In this document: positions 13,802-25,130 of the stretch, in pieces
Position numbering within the stretch: the stretch's first letter is position 1
Layout: the number at the start of each line of letters is the position of its first letter
DNA from: Alphaproteobacteria bacterium
Lineage (GTDB): Bacteria > Pseudomonadota > Alphaproteobacteria > Micavibrionales > Micavibrionaceae
Assembly: GCA_024279035.1 (NCBI GenBank)
Contig: JAJRSA010000015.1
Coordinates: 1 to 64,000 of the forward strand
Reading direction: 5' to 3'
Length of the DNA: 64,000 nucleotides
Notes under the pieces: model-generated
Seen by the model: only the letters and a program-made list of their open reading frames with translations
Database searches by the model: none
What the model was told of the DNA's origin: nothing
Position numbers and translations under genes: made by a program

Positions 13802-14596
13802 ATGAAAAAAACCTATCTGACTATTGATGATTCTCCTTCTCCAAATACAGGAAAAGTGATTGAATATTTGGGTCAAAAAAATATTCAGGCTTTATTTTTT
13901 TGTATTGGAGACCATCTAGAAAAATATCCTGATGCGATGGAGGAGGCCCTACACGCTGGGCATGTTCTCGCGAACCATACATATACCCATCGGCGTTTCA
14001 GTACCCTATCTTTTGGGGCGTGTATTCAAGAGATTGAAAAAACGGAACATTTGATTGACCGATGCTATAAAAAAGCTAAGAAAATCCGCACAGGAAAATA
14101 TTTTCGGTTTCCCCATATGGATAGAGGAACGGCGGGATGGGTTGTGGATTATGATGCTATCGATGAGATCTATCGAGAAGAGGTCATTACTCTGTTTGCA
14201 GACGGTCTTAACATTACGCTTGAGCGACCAACGGATGAGATGATTGAAAAGAAGCACCAGCTTCAAGCCTACCTCAAACAAGAAGGCTATATTCAACCCT
14301 TTAAGGGGGTAACACATCCATGGTTTCAAGGGACAGAGTTAGAAACTGCCCGAGATTGTATGTACAGTTTCTCAAACAGTGACTGGATGCTCCTTGATCG
14401 TCATCGTGGCCAATGGCCGTATAAGACCGAAGAAGATCTTAAAGCTAAGATTGATCATGATAAATACCTAAATGATGAGACAAGTACTCATATTATTCTG
14501 GCACACGATAAACCTGAACCTGAGCTGTTCCCTATATTTAAAACCACCCTCGATCATATGATCGAGAGTGGTTTTGTATTTTTAGATATCAATTAA
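13802..14596 (+). CDS. NodB-homology polysaccharide deacetylase family protein
   Basis: The 264-residue protein begins directly with the NodB core: TIDDSP (catalytic/metal Asp pair), then NHTYTH (metal-binding His pair), and RFPHMDRG in the motif-3 region. The 120 C-terminal residues carry the weaker HIILAHDKPE end motif. There is no signal peptide, so it is either cytoplasmic or uses an unusual route. The family removes N-acetyl or other acyl groups from glycans; the substrate here is unknown. It starts 33 bp after fabG on the same strand. Its 3' coding end contains a strong hairpin followed by T-rich sequence. Confidence 0.8.
   Translation: MKKTYLTIDDSPSPNTGKVIEYLGQKNIQALFFCIGDHLEKYPDAMEEALHAGHVLANHTYTHRRFSTLSFGACIQEIEKTEHLIDRCYKKAKKIRTGKYFRFPHMDRGTAGWVVDYDAIDEIYREEVITLFADGLNITLERPTDEMIEKKHQLQAYLKQEGYIQPFKGVTHPWFQGTELETARDCMYSFSNSDWMLLDRHRGQWPYKTEEDLKAKIDHDKYLNDETSTHIILAHDKPEPELFPIFKTTLDHMIESGFVFLDIN
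14543..14580 (+). terminator. Intrinsic terminator embedded in the end of the deacetylase coding sequence
   Basis: A perfect 18-bp palindrome, CTCGATCATATGATCGAG (14549-14566), is extended by flanking ACCAC/GTGGT and followed by TTTTGTATTTTT. It ends transcription of the fabG-deacetylase unit while still encoding DHMIESGFVFLD. The convergent dotA-like gene ends at 14608, so the terminator has been folded into coding sequence. Confidence 0.65.
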
Positions 14597-14607
14597 TTAG
14601 AAAATTA

Positions 14608-17535
14608 TCATTTCGCTAAAGCAGCATCGATTTTAGCACTTTGAGCTTTCTGCGCTGCTTGACCCGCTGCCGCATCTTGCGAGCCTTTAATCCCTTTCAC
14701 GCCCCCTTCAAGACCTCCAAGACCTTGCTGGAAGATCATTCCTCCCCCAATTGCTGCATATTGTGTGAGACTTTGTGCTGCATCTTCGGAATTATCTCCA
14801 AAGCTTGTCACAGAGGACCCCATCCACCGTAAGATACTGTTGGGAATCATATCGATCAGTTTGAATGACGAGAGGGCCATCATGTACAAAATCACGGCAT
14901 AAATGATGAGGAAGAAGAATTGATCAATTTTTCCTCGTGACCATGATATTGCATTGGCAACTGTTCCTCCCCCAGAGGCCGCAGGATCCAGAGAGTTAAA
15001 CCCAGTTGCATTAACCGTGACAAGATCCCATATATTATTGAGAACAGAGGCCATCGCAGCAAAAATAAGAATAGAAGCCAATAAACCAAATACGATGAGA
15101 ATAGGCCTTAAGAAGATCTCAAAAATCAAATAATACCCATTCATAGCGCCTTCTCCAGGCAAGCCATCTCCATCAATACGAAGATGACCCAGTGCCCATA
15201 ACGGAGCCCCCACCATCGCTTCAAAGATCCCTTTCACCCAGTTTCCAACGGCAAAGAAAAAATACACAAAAGGAAGGAAAGGAATAACATAGAAAAGAAT
15301 AAACCCAATGGTAAGCCCCATGCCTGCAATCCCGAATGCCGCGCTCATTCCTGTACAGCCAACATCTTCCCCTGCAGCACACGCACCTGCTCCAAGCGCC
15401 CCTATCCCTAAATTGAGAATAGCACTTTCAATCAAACTTTTACCAACGCCTGCAATTTGTGCCAAAGGATGAATATTTTGGTTTGCGGGACTTCTTAAGT
15501 TCATTAACCCTTCTGTCCCGAACATCAAATTAATGATATCTGTAAAAGGATTCCCCGTTGGTTTGTCTGTTGCCGTTGATTCTGCAATATTAGCCGCTTT
15601 GAAAACATCATGATAAACTTGTGCCGCAGTCTCCTCGTTTTTACGCTTAAAAGGAATAATCTTTTGCTTAATCGAAGGGCTAAAACTATTCACAACATTA
15701 GAAAAACTTTCATCTAACATTTCATGTTGCATAGCCGCATACGTCATAGTTGCTGGGTATGCTTTAACATCTGGGAGATTTCTAGAGGCACCAACCATTG
15801 CACCATTCATTTGAGCAATACGATTATACCAGATTCCAGCGCCACCCCACCCACGTGCCAATAACTGACCAGGGAGATTAAAGTCTGTGGATGTTTGCTG
15901 TGTTAAAACAGCTGTCGCAATAATTTCATTTATACTCCCCGCTCCAGGAGCAGCAGGAGGAAAGCCCCCTGCATAGAGATATTTTTCTCCAAGATTCGTA
16001 AAATCAACATTTAAAGCAGGAGGTGGCGCCGCTGGCGTAGGTGGCCACGCCCCCGAATGTAACCATGCCGAACTCGTTATTTGTTGTGGAATATTTCCAA
16101 GACGTAACCGTGCATAATGGAGTCCCAGATCTCGCATAGCTGGATCATCCCACATGGCTGCAATCATTTCATAGTAACGCCGTTGAATCTCGAGTGCACC
16201 CGGTTCATACAGCGAAGAATTTTTAAGAACCAACTCTCCACAATAGGGAGACACTCCTCCTTTTTCCATACCATAACGCGCAGGATTTAGCTCTCCAAAG
16301 CGGATTAAAATATCTCCATTTTGATAAAAAGTGCGCGCTTGAGCATAGGATGTAATTGGCGTAGTCCCCGGTATTCCTCCCCCCCCCCCTCCAGGAGCCA
16401 CTGCAGAACTACCAAGCGTTGCATGAGAATTAGCAAAAGGCTCTCTATTAGGGGTTCCTACAGCTTTAACAAGCCAAGGATGAATAGCATTTCTTTGATT
16501 GTTAGGCAAAGAATTCTGGGTTCCAGAAGGATGCGTCCCCCCCTCTTGTTGTAAAGCAGCATCTTCTATGATGGCACATGTTTTAGCCAAAATCATAAAG
16601 GTTACAAGCCTCTTTGCATCAGGTCCGTTGGGGGTTGCAATCATATTTGCAGAGTTGATTAACCCTCCCCCTGAAATAGCACCTGCTAAATTTACATTAA
16701 AAGTTAACCATCCGTTGGTTGCCATATTAGACCCAAGCTTTGCGGCATAAAGCACAATATATTGAGAACTATTTAAACCACTTCCTAGGGGAACAAGAAG
16801 ACCAATGGCTACGACTAACCTGATTGGTGCCCACACAGTATTAAATCTTTTTCCAAATGGTGTTCCTGTTTGTGCGGTTTCTGCTGTAATCGCAATGGCA
16901 TAATAGACAATAAGGAGCATTCCAATAATGAGGAGCCCTGTACTATAGAACTGAAACATACTGTGTAGCGCTAAATGAAATGGCCATGGTGCTGGAGGAA
17001 CCGCCATAACATTAACAGTATCAAATGTAAGTTGGGGTGTGAGCCCATAGCAAGGCGTTGCCGTCGTTACACAAGAGTTAAAAATATTAGGAACACCAAA
17101 AACCCGATCTAAAAGCATAAAGGCTATATCCTGATTTGGATCAGAGAGCGCATTCGTTCCAAAATAGACAGCAAATGGCGTTGCCATTGCTGCCGGAGAA
17201 ACAATAGCTAACATCAAAAATACAAACTGGCCTGCAATCAGGATAAGGGCCGCCAGTAATATAAAATATAAGATAATCTGATCCAGATTTTCACGCTTAA
17301 AAACAAGGTTCTTACTTGCTTCTGCAACAACATGACGAACACCAAAACGACCAATATTGGCAGAATTAAGATAAGGATGGCCCGCGGGAATAAGACGAAC
17401 AATATTATATATACTCGCCATAAGAAACGCAAAATAAGAAAATCCAGAGGCGACAAGGTCATAAAGTCTAGGGAATAACCCAGGAAGCATACTGTACTTC
17501 AGAAAAGGACGGACGTGACTAACTTTTTTACTCAT
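14608..17535 (-). CDS. dotA: DotA/TraY family type IVB secretion membrane protein, copy 1
   Basis: This 975-residue polytopic inner-membrane protein follows the DotA/TraY plan: an N-terminal block (LPGLFPRLYDL, HPYLNSANIGRFGVR), membrane helices near 30-50 and 85-120, a conserved cytoplasmic/TM block with FGKRFNTVWAPIRLVVAIG, a long periplasmic region, then HPLAQIAGVGKSLIESAILN and a C-terminal TM cluster. Motifs shared with the other two copies include PYCGELV and GWGGAGIWYNRIAQMNG in the periplasmic part, and WALGHLRIDGDG. DotA is part of the type IVB secretion/conjugation channel. It is last in the dotA trio, separated from copy 2 by 128 bp. A run of 11 G on the coding strand encodes a Gly6 tract. 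Confidence 0.85.
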   Translation of the reverse strand: MSKKVSHVRPFLKYSMLPGLFPRLYDLVASGFSYFAFLMASIYNIVRLIPAGHPYLNSANIGRFGVRHVVAEASKNLVFKRENLDQIILYFILLAALILIAGQFVFLMLAIVSPAAMATPFAVYFGTNALSDPNQDIAFMLLDRVFGVPNIFNSCVTTATPCYGLTPQLTFDTVNVMAVPPAPWPFHLALHSMFQFYSTGLLIIGMLLIVYYAIAITAETAQTGTPFGKRFNTVWAPIRLVVAIGLLVPLGSGLNSSQYIVLYAAKLGSNMATNGWLTFNVNLAGAISGGGLINSANMIATPNGPDAKRLVTFMILAKTCAIIEDAALQQEGGTHPSGTQNSLPNNQRNAIHPWLVKAVGTPNREPFANSHATLGSSAVAPGGGGGGIPGTTPITSYAQARTFYQNGDILIRFGELNPARYGMEKGGVSPYCGELVLKNSSLYEPGALEIQRRYYEMIAAMWDDPAMRDLGLHYARLRLGNIPQQITSSAWLHSGAWPPTPAAPPPALNVDFTNLGEKYLYAGGFPPAAPGAGSINEIIATAVLTQQTSTDFNLPGQLLARGWGGAGIWYNRIAQMNGAMVGASRNLPDVKAYPATMTYAAMQHEMLDESFSNVVNSFSPSIKQKIIPFKRKNEETAAQVYHDVFKAANIAESTATDKPTGNPFTDIINLMFGTEGLMNLRSPANQNIHPLAQIAGVGKSLIESAILNLGIGALGAGACAAGEDVGCTGMSAAFGIAGMGLTIGFILFYVIPFLPFVYFFFAVGNWVKGIFEAMVGAPLWALGHLRIDGDGLPGEGAMNGYYLIFEIFLRPILIVFGLLASILIFAAMASVLNNIWDLVTVNATGFNSLDPAASGGGTVANAISWSRGKIDQFFFLIIYAVILYMMALSSFKLIDMIPNSILRWMGSSVTSFGDNSEDAAQSLTQYAAIGGGMIFQQGLGGLEGGVKGIKGSQDAAAGQAAQKAQSAKIDAALAK
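16379..16389 (-). repeat. Homopolymer G11 (coding strand) inside dotA copy 1
   Basis: Eleven consecutive C on the + strand (16379-16389) encode part of a Gly6 run (APGGGGGGIPG) in the periplasmic region. Runs of this length slip readily; a change of one base would truncate the protein about 60% from its C-terminus. Confidence 0.9.
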
Positions 17536-17551
17536 AAAAACCTTCTGTTCT

Positions 17552-17625
17552 ATATTCTATCCTATTATCATCAGATATAGATAAAATTTTAGTAAATTTA
17601 CCTATATATTCTACCATATTCTACA
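17552..17625 (-). repeat. Direct repeats ATATTCTAYM upstream of dotA copy 1
   Basis: ATATTCTACC (17606-17615) and ATATTCTACA (17616-17625) are tandem copies with a 10-bp period, and a third copy, ATATTCTATC, lies at 17552-17561, directly before the dotA copy 1 start (17535). One-helical-turn spacing suggests an operator. Read on the minus strand the units contain TAGAAT, which could also serve as a -10 box for a separate promoter of this copy. Confidence 0.4.
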
Positions 17626-17663
17626 CTAGAAGCCATCAAATACAGCCTAAGGTATTAAATTCG

Positions 17664-20369
17664 TTATTTAAATGGAGATATTGCTCCTCCTGCCACTTGT
17701 CCTAATCCTTTTGCTCCATCTTTCAGAGCTCCTGTTAATTCTCCCCCAAGAACACCGCCTCCAATTGCAGCATATCTAATTAAATTATCTGCAGCATCTT
17801 CTGCTTTGTCTCCGAAACTTTCAACCCCTTCTCCAATCCAGCGCAAAATACTGTTAGGGACAAGATCAATGAGTTTAAAGCAAGAAGTTGCCATGATATA
17901 AATCAAGACAACATAAAGAAGTGTGAAGAAGAATTGATCGACCTGACTCCGATAATATTCTATATCTAAGAAAGTAGCCACACCCGTCCCAGAAACATAT
18001 GTCCCAGGCGTAGAATAAGAATCATATCCCGACAAGTTTGCCGCAACGAGATCAAAAAGCTCGTTCATAACAACCGCCATCGCCGTAAAAATAGAGACGG
18101 CAGCAAGCATGCCAAATACCGTAAGAATAGGTCTAAGAAAAATTTCAAGAAGAAGAACATATCCATTTTTTGCCGCAGGGCCTGAAATACCATCCCCATC
18201 AATTTTTAAATGGGCAAGCGCCCATAAAGGAACAGCAACCATTGCTTCAAAGATGGCTTTAACCCATTTCCCCATTGCAAAGAAGAAATAAATAAAAGGA
18301 AGAAATGGTAAAATATAAAAAAGCAAAAAGCCTGTGGTGAGCGCAATAGATCCAATAGTAATAAAAGTACCGGAGAACCCTTCTGCCATAACACTGGCTG
18401 GCTTCTCGTTTGCGGAAGAGGCTGCCCCTGCTCCAAAAGAAAGAGTCATTCCAATCCCAATATTTGTGATGGCACTTTCAATAATGCTTTTTCCAAGCCC
18501 TGACATTTGTGCCAAAGGATGAACATCATTGTTTTCTCGTAGATCAAAAAGACCATCCGCACCAAAGATAGTGCTCAAAATAACCCCTATGGGGTTAGAA
18601 TCTTCTTTTGCATCTGGTGTCGGATCAAGATCATCATCTGTAAAAACCTTATAAATTTCATTAAGATGACCAGCGACTTCATGATCGCGCGCCGCTTGCC
18701 AACTAAATGCTGTATCTTTTGGTTCCTTGGGAAGCTGAGGGTTATATTTATCAAGTGCAAATAATTGTGGAGCCATGCGCTTTTTTTCTTGGGCCACAAA
18801 CTCCATAACTTCTGGGAGATCCTGACCATAAGGTATTTCATAAGTAGCCGTGATAATGGCCCCATTAATCTCAGAAATCTTATTAAACCATAGACCTGCA
18901 GCGCCCCACCCTTGATCAAGAAATATTCCACCATAATCAAATCCAGTATATCCAGTAACACTGGCAGGGCTAAGTGTTGCTACTAAGGTGGCCTCTAAAT
19001 TCGTCTGTGTCATAGAAATGAGGTTTCTAAGGTAAGTGACAGGTGGGGCGTTCGTACATCCCCCCCCCCAAATAGCGGGACAAGCAACAGCTCCGACAAA
19101 CGTAGAGAAACCATACCGTTCTTCTGCAATTTTTTCTGCCATCTGATTTAAATTGGTATTATTCCAGAGGGACTCCATTATATCGAAATACGCTTCTGAA
19201 ATTGTAAGAGCAAAAGGAACATTTGTCGAATCGATAGAAAGAACTATTTCTCCACAATACGGACGAATACGAGACGCATAAGTACCATGTATAGGAGGAG
19301 TTGCCGTACTTCCATTTTCTCCATATCTGATACGGATATCCTTGTGCCCAGCATAAAAAGCCAATGCCGCAGCAAATGTTGAAGGTGAGACAGATGCTGT
19401 CCCTGTATATAAATAAGGTTGGATATCCTTATCGTAGACTCGTTTATAGGCTGCACGACAAGACGTTACGAGATGATAGAACTGTACAAGTGTTGTTAAG
19501 TCTGGAGAATTGGGCTTAACAATCATATTAGGCGCGTCAGATCCAAGCGCATTCGTTAGACTAATATTAAAAACTTTCCATCCGTTTGTGCCAAGACCAG
19601 ACCCCCAATTGGCCACATTTAAGAGAAGATATTGACCTGTATTAATTCCGTTGGCGAGAGGAAGAAGGAGGGCGACAGCCAGAACCAATCTAAGAGGGGC
19701 ATAGACACTTCCAAATCGCCGTCCAAAAGGAGATCCTGTTTGTGCCGTCTCAGCAACAACGACAAAGAAATAGTATAAGATAATAAGCAAAGCAACAACG
19801 AGCATACAAGCACTATAAAATTGAAAGAGGGCATGCAGGCCTATATGGATTGGCCATGGAGTTGCAGGCAAGGCACTCGGAGCGCCCGTACATAAGACAC
19901 CTTGAGCAATACAGGAATTAAAAACATTTGGAACACCAAAAATGCGATCCAACATTATAAGAGCAAGATCATCATCAGGAGGTGTTGTTTGAAACAATCC
20001 CGTAATTATTGTTGCAAAGGCTGACCCAGAATAAGAACAAAGAAACAAGAGGATAGAAATTAATTGTGCCAAGAGAAGAAGAAATGCACAAGAGACAAGA
20101 ACAAATAACACGATCTGGTCAATGTTCTTCCACGACCATTTAAGGTTAGTATATGCCTCTAAAATAACATCTCTGACTCCAAAACGATTTATATTGTCAG
20201 CATTCAGATAAGGATGCCCTGCAGGAAGCAAGCGTGTGATAGAAAACAGATATGCAGTAAGAAAGGATAAGTAACCAAAATTAAATCCAAATTCTCGAAA
20301 GCGAGAAGAAATCTCTGGCATAACAGCATAGCGAATAGATCGTTTTAAAAGAGTCGACTGCGGTCTCAT
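17664..20369 (-). CDS. dotA: DotA/TraY family type IVB secretion membrane protein, copy 2
   Basis: The 901-residue paralogue has the same architecture as its neighbours: N-terminal HPYLNADNINRFGVRD, first TM pair, FGRRFGSVYAPLRLVLAVALLLP, a periplasmic region with RPYCGEIVLS and GWGAAGLWFNKISEINGA, HPLAQMSGLGKSIIESAITN, then a TM cluster with WALAHLKIDGDG and SCFKLIDLVPNSILRWIGEG. It is the shortest of the three. Its ATG overlaps the stop of copy 3 (ATGA), so copies 3 and 2 are translationally coupled. A G10 run lies in the middle (19060-19069, encoding WGGGC). Confidence 0.85.
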   Translation of the reverse strand: MRPQSTLLKRSIRYAVMPEISSRFREFGFNFGYLSFLTAYLFSITRLLPAGHPYLNADNINRFGVRDVILEAYTNLKWSWKNIDQIVLFVLVSCAFLLLLAQLISILLFLCSYSGSAFATIITGLFQTTPPDDDLALIMLDRIFGVPNVFNSCIAQGVLCTGAPSALPATPWPIHIGLHALFQFYSACMLVVALLIILYYFFVVVAETAQTGSPFGRRFGSVYAPLRLVLAVALLLPLANGINTGQYLLLNVANWGSGLGTNGWKVFNISLTNALGSDAPNMIVKPNSPDLTTLVQFYHLVTSCRAAYKRVYDKDIQPYLYTGTASVSPSTFAAALAFYAGHKDIRIRYGENGSTATPPIHGTYASRIRPYCGEIVLSIDSTNVPFALTISEAYFDIMESLWNNTNLNQMAEKIAEERYGFSTFVGAVACPAIWGGGCTNAPPVTYLRNLISMTQTNLEATLVATLSPASVTGYTGFDYGGIFLDQGWGAAGLWFNKISEINGAIITATYEIPYGQDLPEVMEFVAQEKKRMAPQLFALDKYNPQLPKEPKDTAFSWQAARDHEVAGHLNEIYKVFTDDDLDPTPDAKEDSNPIGVILSTIFGADGLFDLRENNDVHPLAQMSGLGKSIIESAITNIGIGMTLSFGAGAASSANEKPASVMAEGFSGTFITIGSIALTTGFLLFYILPFLPFIYFFFAMGKWVKAIFEAMVAVPLWALAHLKIDGDGISGPAAKNGYVLLLEIFLRPILTVFGMLAAVSIFTAMAVVMNELFDLVAANLSGYDSYSTPGTYVSGTGVATFLDIEYYRSQVDQFFFTLLYVVLIYIMATSCFKLIDLVPNSILRWIGEGVESFGDKAEDAADNLIRYAAIGGGVLGGELTGALKDGAKGLGQVAGGAISPFK
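19060..19069 (-). repeat. Homopolymer G10 (coding strand) inside dotA copy 2
   Basis: Ten consecutive C on the + strand encode Trp-Gly-Gly-Gly-Cys in the periplasmic region. Together with the G11 in copy 1 this is the second long G tract in the dotA trio; copy 3 has none of comparable length. Confidence 0.9.
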
Positions 20370-23275
20370 GGCGTTGTCCCTCCAGATCCTGTCCCAGTGG
20401 GGGGCTTCCCTAGCCCTGTAGCGGTATTGCTAAATCCTGCAATATTCGAGGACGTGTTAGCGCCCACCACCCCACCTAACCCTGTAGCACCGCCAACTCC
20501 CTTTCCAAGGGCTTCACCTACAGTCGATACACCTTGCCCAATAGCAGGAGCAAAACGATACGTAGCCATAGAGGCATATCGATAGAGGCCATCTGCTGGA
20601 TCTTTTGCCATATCTCCAAAGGACTTCACTCCCGCATTAATCCAACGTATTACACTGTGAGGAATTTGATCAATAAGCTTAAAAGAAGACGTTCCAATCA
20701 TATAAACAACAATAATATACATGACGAGGAAGAAGAATTGATCAACGTTATTTCGATGATATCCCATTGTTAAAGGATTATTCAATGAGGCCATCTCAAC
20801 AGTAACGCCTGATAAATTATCTGTGACAAGATCCCATATATTATTTAAAACCGCGACAGAAGCAGAAAAGATAGCGGTTGATGCGATAAGGCCAAACAGG
20901 ATGAGTGTTGGGCGAATAAAGATTTCTAAGAGCAGGTAATAACCCGATTGAGCTTCTTTGGAAAAAAGGCTATCTCCTTTCAATTTTAGATGCGCTAAAG
21001 CCCAAAGTGGAACACCCACCATAGCCTCAAAAATTGATTTTATCCACCCAGACGCCGCAAAGAAACTGTATAAAAATGGCATAAAAGGGACGATATAGTA
21101 AAGAACAACCCCGAGTAAAATTCCAATGAAAGAAAGAGCAGAAAAGAAACCTGCCATCCCTGTAAAAGCACTCCCTAATCCTTCTCCTGCAGCATTCATA
21201 GTCCCTCCTATAAATGAAGCACCTGCGGCAAGGGTTAAATTTGTAATGGCATTTTCAATTAAGTTACGGCCAATGGAAGATAATTGCGCCAAAGGATGAA
21301 GGTGATCCTGCTCTCTGATCGTTAAAATAGGGGTTAAACCAAAGATAGAGGCCAATGATCCTTCAAAAGGATTGGCTTTTGAAGCCATATTTCTTGGATC
21401 CGCCCCCCCATCAGACGTCCAGTAGTCATACGCAACAAGAAGCGTTGAACTGATTTGCCTATCTTGTTCATTGTCAAATTTTACATTTCTATTACCATCG
21501 GCAACAGGTTGAAAAATATTTAATGGATCAGTATTTGGATTAGTAGAAAGCTTATACTCTTTAGATTTTTCCATCACTTCTGGAAATTTCCCTGGGTGCG
21601 GTATAGCCGAAACGCCAATGACCACATCCCCATTCCATTCAGAGATTTTGTTATACCATATGCCTGCTGTCACCCACCCTCTATTCAGATCAGCTGCCGT
21701 TGGCGTAAAGGGACTTGGAACAATCGTCATCAAACCTGAAATGGTTAGATCAACTATATCATTAAAAACACGTCTAAATTCTGATGTTGAAAAAGCTCTA
21801 TGATTTGGAGAAAGCTCTGGGTTATTACAAGCTCCCAATCCTGTGTATGAAGACCCTAGTCCACAGGGTGAAATAAGGTTATATCCTTTATTTTGAAGCT
21901 TATGAGCGACAATTTTATATCCAAATGTTTGAGGCCTCTGGATTTCTGGAAGAGTAGAAAAAATCAACGGATTGGGCTCTGAAAAAAGAGTCATGACCTC
22001 AACATAATAAGCCCACCCTAACGCCGTTTGCAATTGAGGAATGGTAAGGTTTTTATACGGGAAAACAAGGTCTCCACAATAGGGGCGTACGTTTCCTGTA
22101 AGCTTAGGATAATCTGTTATACTTTTATGACCAAAATATATATAGACATCGCTCGTCCCATAAAATGTAAGAGCATCGTTAAAATTAACGACTCCAGGGC
22201 TTGAAAACACAAGTTGTGAAAGCCCTGCTCCAGCATTTACTTTTACAAAGTAAGGCTGGATATCAATATCATACATTTGCTTATAGGCATAAATGCATGT
22301 ATGTATTAAATTAGCATACGCAATTAGTCCTGACACATCAGGAGCTTGAGGATGCACAATCAATCCATTTGATACATAAGAGCCTCCACCACTATAGGAT
22401 GGCGCTTGAGTATAGGCATTTCCATTGACATCAGTGTAGCTATAATTCGGTCCTTGATATGCAATGGGAGCACCTGTCCCAAAAGGGGAGGTAACACCTG
22501 GAGCTGCGTTAAATGCAAGCCATACATTGGTTGCCACACCCGACCCATATTTTGCAACATAGAGAAGTATGTACTGCGCAGAATTAAGACCATAATTTCC
22601 CATGGGAACAAGGAGTCCAAGAGCCAGAACTAGCCTCAATGGCCCCCATATTTTATGAAACCTTTCTCCAAAGAGATTCCCCGAAAAAGCGGTTTCCCCA
22701 ACAATTGACACAATATAATATAGAAAGATAAAACCAGCAAGAATCCACAGAGCAGTATTATAAAATGCTAACATACTATGCAGTCCGACCTGAAAAGGCG
22801 TTGGGAAAACAGGCACAGTTGCAGCATATCCAGAGTTATACACACCAGGTATACCAAAAATACGATCTAAAATTTCAAAGGCAATATCAGTCGCTGGACT
22901 TGCAGTAATGACAGTTGCCATCAATGCATGAGCACTATTCGAAAAAAAAGAAAAGGCGAATCCAAAAGCAAAAAGAATAAACAAAAAGAATGTTAAAAGC
23001 GTCGCTCCAAACACAACAATTTTATCAATATTCTTGCGATCAAATGTAAGTTCATTTGCAGCAACAGAGACCAGAGAAACAATTCCAAATCGTCCATAAT
23101 TATCCATATTAAGATAAGGGTGCGTTGCAGGCAAAAGCCCTAAATTTTTATAAAGGCTGGCCAAGAACATGGGGAGGTAATAGAAGTGACTAAACAATGT
23201 TTTCAAGCGTGGAAATACGCCCGGTAAGGTCGCATACATAAACACATTTTTTGGTTTTAATTCAACCTCTTGCAC
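20366..23275 (-). CDS. dotA: DotA/TraY family type IVB secretion membrane protein, copy 3 (first in operon)
   Basis: The 969-residue paralogue is transcribed first. It starts at GTG (23273-23275) preceded by a strong AGGAGGGG six bases upstream, which decides the start. The order of blocks is the same: LPGVFPRLKTLFSHFYYLP, HPYLNMDNYGRFGIV, TM pair, FGERFHKIWGPLRLVLALGLLVP, periplasmic RPYCGDLVFPYK and GWVTAGIWYNKISEWNGD, HPLAQLSSIGRNLIENAITN, TM cluster with WALAHLKLKGDS and SSFKLIDQIPHSVIRWINAG. A Gly/Thr-rich tail ends the protein (GLGKPPTGTGSGG). Extra Cys residues (SPCGLG, GACNN) lie in the periplasmic part. No other secretion genes are adjacent. Confidence 0.85.
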   Translation of the reverse strand: MQEVELKPKNVFMYATLPGVFPRLKTLFSHFYYLPMFLASLYKNLGLLPATHPYLNMDNYGRFGIVSLVSVAANELTFDRKNIDKIVVFGATLLTFFLFILFAFGFAFSFFSNSAHALMATVITASPATDIAFEILDRIFGIPGVYNSGYAATVPVFPTPFQVGLHSMLAFYNTALWILAGFIFLYYIVSIVGETAFSGNLFGERFHKIWGPLRLVLALGLLVPMGNYGLNSAQYILLYVAKYGSGVATNVWLAFNAAPGVTSPFGTGAPIAYQGPNYSYTDVNGNAYTQAPSYSGGGSYVSNGLIVHPQAPDVSGLIAYANLIHTCIYAYKQMYDIDIQPYFVKVNAGAGLSQLVFSSPGVVNFNDALTFYGTSDVYIYFGHKSITDYPKLTGNVRPYCGDLVFPYKNLTIPQLQTALGWAYYVEVMTLFSEPNPLIFSTLPEIQRPQTFGYKIVAHKLQNKGYNLISPCGLGSSYTGLGACNNPELSPNHRAFSTSEFRRVFNDIVDLTISGLMTIVPSPFTPTAADLNRGWVTAGIWYNKISEWNGDVVIGVSAIPHPGKFPEVMEKSKEYKLSTNPNTDPLNIFQPVADGNRNVKFDNEQDRQISSTLLVAYDYWTSDGGADPRNMASKANPFEGSLASIFGLTPILTIREQDHLHPLAQLSSIGRNLIENAITNLTLAAGASFIGGTMNAAGEGLGSAFTGMAGFFSALSFIGILLGVVLYYIVPFMPFLYSFFAASGWIKSIFEAMVGVPLWALAHLKLKGDSLFSKEAQSGYYLLLEIFIRPTLILFGLIASTAIFSASVAVLNNIWDLVTDNLSGVTVEMASLNNPLTMGYHRNNVDQFFFLVMYIIVVYMIGTSSFKLIDQIPHSVIRWINAGVKSFGDMAKDPADGLYRYASMATYRFAPAIGQGVSTVGEALGKGVGGATGLGGVVGANTSSNIAGFSNTATGLGKPPTGTGSGGTTP

Positions 23276-23575: not shown

Positions 23576-23812
23576 ATGAGTGACGTAGCTGAACGCGTAA
23601 AAAAGATTGTTGTTGAACATCTTGGCGTAGAAGAAAGCAAAGTTTCAGAAGCGGCAAGCTTCATTGATGATTTGGGCGCAGACTCATTGGATACAGTTGA
23701 GCTTGTGATGGCCTTTGAAGAGGAATTCAATGTTGAAATTCCTGATGATGCCGCAGAAAAGATTCAAACTGTTGGAGATGCTGTGTCCTTCATCTCTGAG
23801 AATGTTGCATAG
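23576..23812 (+). CDS. acpP: Acyl carrier protein
   Basis: This 78-residue acidic four-helix protein carries fatty acyl chains on phosphopantetheine attached to Ser37 in [10 protein letters not shown]. The ribosome-binding site AAGGAA sits 6 nt before the ATG. It is followed 40 bp later by fabF; its usual upstream neighbour fabG is 9.8 kb away beyond the dotA trio. Expression is probably from the intergenic region described above. Confidence 0.97.
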
Positions 23813-23852
23813 TCGCCCCATTTTAACTCCCCATTTACTGACGTAGAAAATT

Positions 23853-25130
23853 ATGAGACGTGTTGTTGTTACAGGTTTAGGGATGGTGTCCCCCCTCGGT
23901 GTAGGGGTTAACCATAACTGGTCTGCAATTACGCGCGGGCAAAGCGGGATTCGTAAAATAGATCGTTTTGATGCATCTGATATTTCGTCCCGAATTGCTG
24001 GACTTGTTCCTTATAATTCAGAAATTTTTGGAAAAGGTAAAGAGTATGCTTTTGATCCTGACAAATATGCTAGCCCCAAAGATCAAAAGAAGATTGATAC
24101 ATTCATCCTCTATGCCCTTGCCGCGGCAGCAGAAGCCGTTGAAGACAGCGGCTGGACACCAGAAGATGAGTTATCATTAGAGCGTACGGGCGTGATGATT
24201 GGCTCTGGGATTGGTGGATTACAAACAGTTCATGAAACAGGACGAACATTGGATGCTAAGGGACCACGCCGTGTGTCCCCTTTTTCTGTGCCTGCCATGC
24301 TGATTAATTTAGCCTCTGGACATGTCTCTATCAAATATGGCTTTAAAGGCCCTAATCACTCTGTCGTGACGGCCTGCGCCAGCGGAACACATGCCATTGG
24401 AGACGCAGCACGTATGATTGCCCTTGATGACGCCGATGTTATGGTCGCAGGGGGCGCAGAAGCAGCTGTGAACCGTATTGGCGTATCTTCTTTTGCGGCG
24501 GCGCGTGCCTTATCGACTGGTTATAATGATACACCAAAAGAAGCCTCTCGCCCTTTTGACGAAGGACGGGATGGTTTTGTCATTGCCGAAGGGGCGGGGA
24601 TTTTGATCTTGGAAGAATATGAACATGCCAAGGCTCGGGATGCACATATCTACGGTGAAATTATTGGATACGGTCTCTCAGGAGATGCCCATCACATTAC
24701 CTCTCCTGCCCCTGATGGAAGTGGTGGATTTCGAGCTATGAAGGCTGCTTTGAAACGCGCAAAAATTAATCCTGAAGATGTAGATTATGTGAATGCACAC
24801 GGGACATCTACTCCCATGGGAGATGGAATTGAATGTGGAGCCATAAAACGTCTTTTTGCGAATACACTTGAGACAGTCTCTATGTCCTCCACAAAATCCT
24901 CTATCGGACACTTACTTGGGGCGGCTGGGGCTGTAGAAGCAATTTATTCCTTTAAAACTCTGGAAACAAATATGCTTCCCCCAACATTAAATTTGGATAA
25001 TGTTTCTGAGCCTTGTCAAGGTATTGACCTTGTCCCTAAAGAAACAAAAGAAAAGACTGTAAATATTGTTCTTTCAAATTCCTTTGGTTTTGGTGGAACA
25101 AATGCCAGTCTTGTCATGAAGTCGGTGTAA
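23853..25130 (+). CDS. fabF: 3-oxoacyl-[acyl-carrier-protein] synthase II
   Basis: FabF condenses malonyl-ACP with acyl-ACP to elongate fatty acids and regulates the unsaturated fraction. At 425 residues it shows the nucleophile Cys175 in VVTACASGTH, the two catalytic His residues in NAHGTSTPMGD and SSIGHLLGAAGA, and the C-terminal NSFGFGGTNASL loop. It has the normal length and no domain loss. It follows acpP and converges with argS, whose stop lies 3 bp away; no hairpin separates them. Confidence 0.97.
   Translation: MRRVVVTGLGMVSPLGVGVNHNWSAITRGQSGIRKIDRFDASDISSRIAGLVPYNSEIFGKGKEYAFDPDKYASPKDQKKIDTFILYALAAAAEAVEDSGWTPEDELSLERTGVMIGSGIGGLQTVHETGRTLDAKGPRRVSPFSVPAMLINLASGHVSIKYGFKGPNHSVVTACASGTHAIGDAARMIALDDADVMVAGGAEAAVNRIGVSSFAAARALSTGYNDTPKEASRPFDEGRDGFVIAEGAGILILEEYEHAKARDAHIYGEIIGYGLSGDAHHITSPAPDGSGGFRAMKAALKRAKINPEDVDYVNAHGTSTPMGDGIECGAIKRLFANTLETVSMSSTKSSIGHLLGAAGAVEAIYSFKTLETNMLPPTLNLDNVSEPCQGIDLVPKETKEKTVNIVLSNSFGFGGTNASLVMKSV

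What the first reader, a model, noticed from the sequence alone, without database searches (positions are those of the whole stretch)
14608..23275. Three tandem, full-length DotA/TraY paralogues
Type IVB systems usually have one DotA. Here three 901-975-residue paralogues with identical block order lie in one unit (3 and 2 coupled by ATGA). All share periplasmic motifs PYCG[ED][LIV] and GW..AG[IL]W[YF]N[RK]I, which I do not know from described DotA. The pattern suggests either a hetero-oligomeric DotA channel or antigenically alternating versions. No other dot/icm genes are adjacent.
Basis: partly seen in the sequence, partly recalled or inferred. Interest (0 to 1): 0.75.

Follow-up and report, generated by a model that had tools for sequence, protein, structure and literature searches.

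The report
Three tandem copies of secretion-channel gene
A little-known group of bacteria related to the predator Micavibrio nearly always carries three side-by-side, intact versions of a gene for the inner channel of a secretion machine, where related machines usually carry one; this makes it possible to ask whether that channel is built from mixed parts.

Summary
In detail: three full-length DotA/TraY (VirB6-class) genes lie head to tail at 14608-23275. Copies 1 and 2, modelled, match Legionella DotA best (Z 21.3, 21.8). They belong to a type IVB system: dotB, C, D, G, H, I, L, M, N, icmT and weaker dotF and dotO lie on other contigs. The array is not local: of 55 complete arrays in MAGs related to Micavibrio, 49 have three genes and 6 four. 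The window copies are under purifying selection. Phylogeny suggests two old types; the middle gene groups with the first type in the window's lineage and with the last type in the other, so a third copy arose, or was overwritten, at least twice. A second multiplied family (2-6 matches in 33 of 36 family genomes) resembles TraW, the VirB5/IcmX-class partner. Close precedent: tandem VirB6 of Rickettsiales. Whether the ring is mixed is untested; no fixed copy-specific residue was found. New variant of a known kind.

The parts
20366..23275 (-). DotA/TraY paralogue, copy 1 (first transcribed), 969 aa, A-type
   Evidence: TIGR04346 E 5.1e-58; model pLDDT 78.6, best PDB match 9ngy DotA Z 21.3; phylogeny
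17664..20369 (-). DotA/TraY paralogue, copy 2, 901 aa, A-type in this lineage
   Evidence: TIGR04346 E 4.4e-79; model pLDDT 84.7, best PDB match 9ngy DotA Z 21.8; A-type group not rejected, p-AU 0.654
14608..17535 (-). DotA/TraY paralogue, copy 3, 975 aa, C-type
   Evidence: TIGR04346 E 3e-69; PDB 9ngy DotA by sequence E 3.7e-19; C-type clade, SH-aLRT 97.9; not modelled
20366..20369 (-). ATGA overlap of the copy 1 stop and the copy 2 start (translational coupling inferred)
   Evidence: negative gaps in 15 of 116 junctions of named arrays, nine of them -4
17536..17663 (-). 128-bp spacer between copy 2 and copy 3
   Evidence: median gap in named arrays 23.5 bp
23021..23275 (-). N-terminal extension of copy 1 (about residues 1-85) ahead of the first hydrophobic segment; copies 2 and 3 have it too
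   Evidence: the five plasmid TraY proteins looked at begin with a signal-peptide-like N-terminus (by inspection)
22067..22084 (-). PYCGDL, copy 1 (Cys400)
   Evidence: alignment A1; this Cys and Gly are invariant in A8, 51 sequences
19245..19262 (-). PYCGEI, copy 2 (Cys372)
   Evidence: this Cys and Gly are invariant in A5, 86 sequences
16231..16248 (-). PYCGEL, copy 3 (Cys432)
21644..21679 (-). GWVTAGIWYNKI, copy 1
   Evidence: counterpart in Legionella DotA and R64 TraY
18876..18911 (-). GWGAAGLWFNKI, copy 2
15817..15852 (-). GWGGAGIWYNRI, copy 3

Best explanation
The three genes encode three DotA/TraY (VirB6-class) inner-membrane protochannel subunits of a chromosomal type IVB secretion system of Micavibrionaceae. 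Shown here by sequence and models: family identity, fold (copies 1 and 2), an intact three-gene array kept across the family, purifying selection, the presence of most of the rest of the machine, and multiplication of a TraW-like (VirB5-class) partner. Inferred: they are expressed together from one operon and work together in one machine, most likely as a mixed (hetero-oligomeric) DotA layer made of an A-type and a C-type subunit plus a third, lineage-specific copy, under the TraW/IcmX-like caps, in the manner suggested by the tandem VirB6 proteins of Rickettsiales. If the ring is a pentamer as in Legionella, the three cannot be present in equal numbers.
For: DotA family and fold. Rest of the T4BSS in the same genome: dotI, dotH, dotG, dotN, weak dotF, a weak VirB4-like gene taken as dotO, TraQ-like, dotB, dotC, dotD, icmT, dotL, dotM. 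Three genes in 49 of 55 complete arrays, four in 6; 55 of 55 arrays on one strand, median gap 23.5 bp, 99 of 116 junctions at most 60 bp. pN 0.237/0.273/0.225 against saturated pS 0.76-0.78 for copies 1/2/3, in the range of dotI, H, C and D (pN 0.21-0.28). Position-clustered phylogeny with an A/C split; composition differs between copies at 126 of 741 columns beyond the highest of 60 permutations. DotA and IcmX form a pentameric protochannel in Legionella (passages of PMC12857230; table in PMC12624023). TraW-like partner multiplied.
Against: No column is fixed differently between the copies at the 90% level (0 copy-specific, 95 shared fixed columns), so there is no signature of obligate fixed positions in a ring. 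Copies 2 and 3 are rejected as single clades (p-AU 0.0005 and 0.0098): the third subunit is not one conserved component. Same-position proteins of different genomes are only slightly more alike (medians 42.5, 41.4, 39.6%) than different-position ones (38.7%). TraW-like number does not track DotA number (G043: one DotA, seven TraW-like matches). Six of 55 arrays have four copies. G025, a single-contig family genome (89% complete) with dotH, dotI, a DotB-like gene and five TraW-like genes, shows no DotA match. Neither the TraW-like profile nor the TraW profile found IcmX in the PDB. No expression or interaction data exist; the 128-bp spacer before copy 3 could hold a promoter.
Confidence: 0.45

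Rival explanations
1. Each paralogue makes its own homopentameric protochannel on a shared core, paired with different TraW/IcmX-like caps, so that one cell carries several T4BSS variants for different partners or substrates.
For: Copies keep the 95 shared fixed columns and full length; TraW-like genes are also multiple, 2-6 matches in 33 of 36 family genomes and five in one run in the window's genome; Bartonella trwJ-H (virB5-7) copies were linked to host-cell surface structures (passage of PMC2653234).
Against: Tight one-strand arrays with overlaps imply joint expression; DotA and TraW-like copy numbers do not match.
Confidence: 0.3
2. Dosage or redundancy: the copies are interchangeable and are kept because more DotA is needed.
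For: No fixed copy-specific residues; the third copy arose or was overwritten at least twice; separate two- and four-copy arrays in other families of the order.
Against: About 40% identity after long divergence, position-specific clustering and composition are unlike a simple dosage array; number kept at three or four in 55 of 55 complete arrays.
Confidence: 0.15
3. Alternating or phase-variable versions, one expressed at a time.
For: Divergent loops between conserved blocks.
Against: Tight co-directional junctions; longest shared repeat found 84 nt at 76% identity; no mosaic block in copy 2.
Confidence: 0.04
4. Left-over or recruited DotA genes with a role outside a T4BSS.
For: The array lies away from the other dot genes in this genome; five family genomes have DotA but no DotH match (G017, G018, G021, G030, G033), two of them, G030 and G033, rated 97-100% complete.
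Against: The window's genome has most of a T4BSS; 50 of 57 genomes have DotH and 56 of 57 DotI matches; missing loci in MAGs can be unbinned contigs.
Confidence: 0.05

Closest known systems
Legionella Dot/Icm DotA (PDB 9ngy, 9nh0)
   Same: Same fold (copy 2: Z 21.8, 592 residues aligned at 6.7 A; copy 1: Z 21.3, 581 at 5.9 A), shared GW..AG block and C-terminal membrane block
   Different: Three paralogues instead of one (single copy in Legionella is recalled); N-terminal extension of about 85 residues; below the DotA equivalog cut-off
IncI plasmid R64 TraY/TraW and alphaproteobacterial T4BSS plasmids (Acetobacter, Roseomonas, Lichenicola)
   Same: Same families: R64 TraY vs the DotA profile 99.3%, E 1.6e-20; a TraW alignment vs the multiplied TraW-like family 97.0%, E 1.3e-10
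   Different: One DotA/TraY gene in each plasmid region looked at; no N-terminal extension in the five proteins looked at
Tandem VirB6 paralogues of Rickettsiales (four in Anaplasmataceae, five in most Rickettsia)
   Same: Tandem multiplication of the VirB6-class channel subunit, kept through speciation, all four expressed in Anaplasma phagocytophilum (passages of PMC7648143 and PMC2653234)
   Different: Those are type IVA systems with extended and, in part, surface-exposed VirB6; here it is the IVB subunit DotA, of near-constant length (872-1098 aa in 55 complete arrays)
Bartonella Trw (several copies of trwL and of trwJ-H)
   Same: Multiplied VirB5-class component, like the TraW-like arrays here (passage of PMC2653234)
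   Different: Type IVA system; the passage does not name VirB6 among the multiplied parts

Membership tests
DotA/TraY (TIGR04346) | Profile score over the curated cut-off of 100 bits | tested here: met
   234.3 (copy 3), 266.8 (copy 2) and 197.2 bits (copy 1)
DotA/TraY (TIGR04346) | Fold of the Legionella DotA protochannel | tested here: met
   Copies 1 and 2 modelled: 9ngy is the best PDB match, Z 21.3 and 21.8, next rows Z 9.9; copy 3 by sequence only, E 3.7e-19
Legionella-type DotA equivalog (NF033886) | Score over 500 bits | tested here: not met
   155.5, 158.6 and 159.8 bits
DotA/TraY (TIGR04346) | Pentameric assembly with an IcmX/TraW-class cap | not testable with these tools
   No complex prediction was available; the homologue's state is taken from passages of PMC12857230 and PMC12624023
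Type IVB secretion system | Core complex DotC, DotD, DotG, DotH | tested here: met
   DotC PF16932 E 6.9e-79 and DotD PF16816 E 1.7e-31, over their Pfam cut-offs; DotG NF033900 E 6.5e-28, below its cut-off; DotH PF12293 E 4.1e-70, over cut-off
Type IVB secretion system | ATPases DotB and DotO and coupling proteins DotL, DotM, DotN | tested here: met
   DotB 404.9 bits against a cut-off of 463.3; DotL by IncI TrbC E 1.5e-113 and DotM E 1.1e-50, both below their cut-offs; DotN 110 bits over its cut-off of 100; DotO only by gene order, length and a weak VirB4 match, E 1.7e-4
Type IVB secretion system | Adaptors and accessory parts (IcmS, IcmW, IcmQ, IcmF, DotU) | not tested
   No search was made for them
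TraW/IcmX (VirB5 class), for the multiplied family | Profile similarity to TraW | tested here: met
   A2 vs A6 (seven proteins, five annotated TraW): 97.0%, E 1.3e-10, 307 columns; vs A7 (five of these): 69.1%, E 4.4e-5; single proteins: Roseomonas 92.4%, E 5.2e-7, Acetobacter 16.6%, E 0.0015, R64 not significant; two control comparisons about 0.1%
TraW/IcmX (VirB5 class), for the multiplied family | Similarity to the solved Legionella IcmX | tested here: inconclusive
   Neither A2 nor A6 found IcmX among PDB sequences at E up to 10; no fold could be made
VirB6 (type IVA) | Fold of TrwI/VirB6 | tested here: inconclusive
   Z 9.9 (255 residues, 7.0 A; 253 residues, 7.0 A), in the range where helical proteins can match by arrangement alone; for copy 1 a sodium-calcium exchanger also reached Z 9.9

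The most novel reading that the evidence does not exclude
Micavibrionaceae build a combinatorial T4BSS protochannel: a mixed DotA ring of an A-type, a C-type and a re-invented third subunit, capped by members drawn from a set of TraW/IcmX-like proteins, giving a repertoire of channel-cap combinations for contact with other cells; selection for three DotA genes was met independently in two lineages.
Probability: 0.2. Interest if true: 0.8.

Novelty: new variant of a known kind. Interest (0 to 1): 0.55.

Why it matters
DotA was recently seen as a pentameric gatekeeper in Legionella (described in PMC12857230, passages read). A bacterial family in which three co-selected DotA genes are the rule makes the question 'can the VirB6-class ring be mixed?' testable by gene removal and co-purification.

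Tried and rejected
PF11388 (Pfam DotA) gave nothing in the own genome, but it rang in none of the 14 control genomes either, so this says nothing. A first genome-contig scan with one protein found no relative; the profile scan found 179, of which the best 80 were kept, 70 distinct loci, so the named set is biased towards close relatives. Genes beside the DotA arrays in relatives looked like T4BSS lipoproteins at first; the representatives tested are MlaC, MlaA, LptF/LptG, a leucyl-aminopeptidase family protein and an ABC-F-like protein. The TraW-like profile found no solved structure at E up to 10, a TraW profile only chance-level PDB matches; the single R64 TraW did not match, and the match became strong only with a TraW alignment. 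A search for fixed copy-specific residues gave none. A window scan for gene conversion in copy 2 gave no clear block. 'A single ancient triplication into three orthologous subunits' was considered after and rejected by AU tests; the A/C grouping was named after seeing the tree, which weakens its test. Literature: ten searches, of which I saw the listed rows (titles and starts of abstracts), showed no report of multiplied DotA; the library lacks most subscription papers, and the PNAS 2025 DotA-IcmX paper and the Ehrlichia VirB6 paper were not held.
Full report
What is there. Three minus-strand genes lie head to tail between an acpP-fabF pair (23576-25130; names by recognition, not by a call) and a polysaccharide deacetylase (13802-14596, PF01522): copy 1 at 20366-23275 (969 aa), copy 2 at 17664-20369 (901 aa), copy 3 at 14608-17535 (975 aa). 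Copy 1 has an AGGAGG just upstream; copies 1 and 2 overlap by ATGA; 128 bp separate copies 2 and 3. All three exceed the cut-off of the DotA/TraY family TIGR04346 and lie far below the Legionella-type DotA equivalog. AlphaFold models of copy 2 (pLDDT 84.7, pTM 0.82) and copy 1 (78.6, 0.72) match Legionella DotA 9ngy best (Z 21.8, 592 residues, 6.7 A; Z 21.3, 581 residues, 5.9 A). The R388 VirB6 homologue follows at Z 9.9, which for helical proteins is not conclusive; for copy 1 a sodium-calcium exchanger scores the same. By Foldseek 9ngy is the only PDB match at E <= 0.001 for copy 2. Copy 3 was not modelled; it matches 9ngy by sequence (E 3.7e-19).

PYCG[ED][LIV] and GW..AG[IL]W[YF]N[RK]I are in all three window proteins. 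Among 50 triplets (49 named three-gene arrays and the window) the strict GW form is in 19, 11 and 10 of 50 for copies 1, 2 and 3, and P-x-C-G in 42, 50 and 44 of 50. Legionella DotA has GW..AG at the aligned place, R64 TraY an aligned GW...GAWY and CG, and a Lichenicola TraY GWTSAG and a CG. They are local forms of wider features. A real difference is an N-terminal extension: by a simple hydropathy scan the first hydrophobic segment starts at a median of residue 87.5 in 84 family sequences (range 20-166) and at medians of 90-113 in the other six families of the order (15 sequences, one as low as 35), whereas five plasmid TraY proteins begin with a signal-peptide-like N-terminus (by inspection).

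The rest of the machine. In the same genome (1.82 Mb, 40 contigs) contig C6 holds dotI, dotH, dotG, a weak dotF, a TraQ-like gene and a shorter similar one, dotN and a 995-aa gene with a weak VirB4 match, taken as dotO, an order like Legionella icmL-K-E-G-C-D-J-B (recalled). C3 holds a DsbG-like gene, a transglycosylase, dotD, dotC, dotB and icmT. C10 holds dotM and dotL. Several score below equivalog cut-offs, so the system is divergent. Across 57 genomes (own included), DotH matches in 50, DotI in 56, DotA in 55 and a TraG/TraD-type C-terminus, which is not specific to DotL, in 56; a DotB-profile match over 300 bits is in 51, counted from the list (the 57 of 57 there includes other ATPases).

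Conservation of the array. In the 70 named loci, 55 arrays were complete (at least 600 bp beyond the array on both sides, no frame running off): 49 with three genes, 6 with four. The 15 others show 2-4 pieces and are cut by or close to a locus end, or hold a broken copy. In 32 of the 36 family genomes I read the array: 28 show three (three of these cut at an end), one four, and three show two at a contig end (counted). The two sets overlap strongly and are not independent. Of the other four, G002, G016 and G021 have matches on fragments and G025 has none. In the other families of the order one gene is found in G036, G041, G040, G042, G046, G048, G039 and G043, but four in G049, two in G050, at least two in G044 and, by match positions only, two in G056 and at least two in G053. 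In a sample of 398 genomes of the phylum, own included, 12 others had a match, 11 with one and one with two pieces on two contigs; only two candidates per genome were scored. All 55 complete named arrays are on one strand; of 116 junctions 99 are at most 60 bp and 15 overlap. In 21 of 34 loci a gene of one cluster (three members tested: MlaC) occurs, as a rule directly beside the array; neither the window nor its same-genus relative L059 has it.

Selection and history. Against the same-genus relative, pN is 0.237, 0.273 and 0.225 for copies 1 to 3 while pS is saturated (0.76-0.78), so dN/dS has no value but selection is clearly purifying; dotI, H, C, D and G show pN 0.21-0.36, dotB 0.10, dotF 0.43. 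A 99-row tree (five duplicate or partial loci and partial rows under 500 aa were left out) clusters copies largely by position. AU tests on 15 of the 26 family genomes with three usable copies, plus 5 outgroup rows, do not reject one clade for copy 1 (p 0.21) but reject it for copy 2 (0.0005) and copy 3 (0.0098). Two groups fit: A-type (copy 1 of all, copy 2 of the window's lineage; the tree that holds them together is 8 log units better than the free search, p 0.65) and C-type (copy 3 of all, copy 2 of the other lineage; SH-aLRT 97.9). These groups were named after seeing the tree. The reading is an ancestor with at least two types and a third gene gained twice, or overwritten by conversion; a window scan (6 and 20 genomes) shows no mosaic block. 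Within the other lineage copies 2 and 3 are themselves weakly rejected as clades (p 0.045 and 0.031), so turnover continues.

Division of labour. No column is fixed at 90% in a copy-specific way, against 95 fixed in common, yet 126 of 741 well-filled columns differ in composition between copies beyond the highest of 60 within-genome permutations. The best match of a copy in another genome has the same position in 77.6%, 63.5% and 54.5% of 2450 comparisons for copies 1, 2 and 3; for the window's copy 2 the commonest best partner is copy 1 (31 of 49) and for its copy 3 it is copy 2 (27 of 49). Median identities are 38.4-40.7% between copies of one genome and 42.5, 41.4 and 39.6% between same-position copies of different genomes.

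A second multiplied component. Near dotI in relatives lie runs of genes for secreted-looking proteins of about 450 aa; the three tested have no convincing Pfam or NCBIfam match. Their profile matches an alignment of seven T4BSS-plasmid proteins, five annotated TraW and two hypothetical (one by position before DotA, one by a TraW tblastn hit): 97.0%, E 1.3e-10, 307 columns; with the five non-alphaproteobacterial ones alone 69%, E 4.4e-5. Single proteins gave 92% (Roseomonas), 17% (Acetobacter) and nothing (R64); two control comparisons gave about 0.1%. A review's table puts TraW, IcmX and VirB5 in one row and TraY, DotA and VirB6 in another, both pentamers (PMC12624023, passage); the link to IcmX rests on that table, since neither profile found IcmX in the PDB. 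Matches (which can include fragments) number 2-6 in 33 of 36 family genomes and 1-7 in 14 of 21 others; the window's genome has five in one run with an unlike 258-aa gene between (L094). Their number does not follow DotA's.

How it most likely works. The genes are almost certainly DotA subunits, and their arrangement implies that they are made together. The best mechanistic reading is a mixed DotA layer under TraW/IcmX-like caps, by analogy with Rickettsiales, where four or five tandem VirB6 genes are kept and, in Anaplasma phagocytophilum, all four are expressed (PMC7648143, PMC2653234, passages; an Ehrlichia study of interacting VirB6 paralogues is known to me only from its title in reference lists). 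Separate homomeric channels are nearly as likely, and dosage is possible. Nothing here tests interaction.

Noticed in passing
L094:6605-13614 (own genome C7), L045, L082, L084: Runs of secreted TraW/IcmX-like proteins (five in the own genome, with an unlike 258-aa gene between) without a convincing Pfam or NCBIfam name; likely VirB5-class caps.
   Followed up: partly
G025 (L045): Single-contig family genome (89% complete) with dotH, dotI, a DotB-like gene and five TraW-like genes but no DotA/TraY match.
   Followed up: no
G030, G033 (L073, L055): Three intact DotA genes but no DotH and no TraW-like match in genomes rated 97-100% complete; loss or unbinned contigs.
   Followed up: no
L118:5632-8579: One DotA copy split into two overlapping frames (175 and 807 aa), the only frame-broken copy I noticed; decay or assembly error.
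   Followed up: no
L041:1336-2106 (own genome C22): Second, remote DotI/IcmL-like gene (NF038072, E 6.6e-10); 48 of 57 genomes have two or more DotI matches.
   Followed up: no
L049 (G049): Separate four-copy DotA array in another family of the order, one copy of 1396 aa, recalling the extended VirB6 of Rickettsiales.
   Followed up: partly
L065, L044, L063 and others: In many genera the DotA array is followed by a convergent mlaC-mlaA-lptF/lptG run and often preceded by an ABC-F-like gene, but not in the window or its same-genus relative.
   Followed up: yes
window:23021-23275 and the start of copies 2 and 3: Conserved N-terminal extension of about 85 residues in DotA of this order, absent from the five plasmid TraY proteins looked at.
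   Followed up: partly
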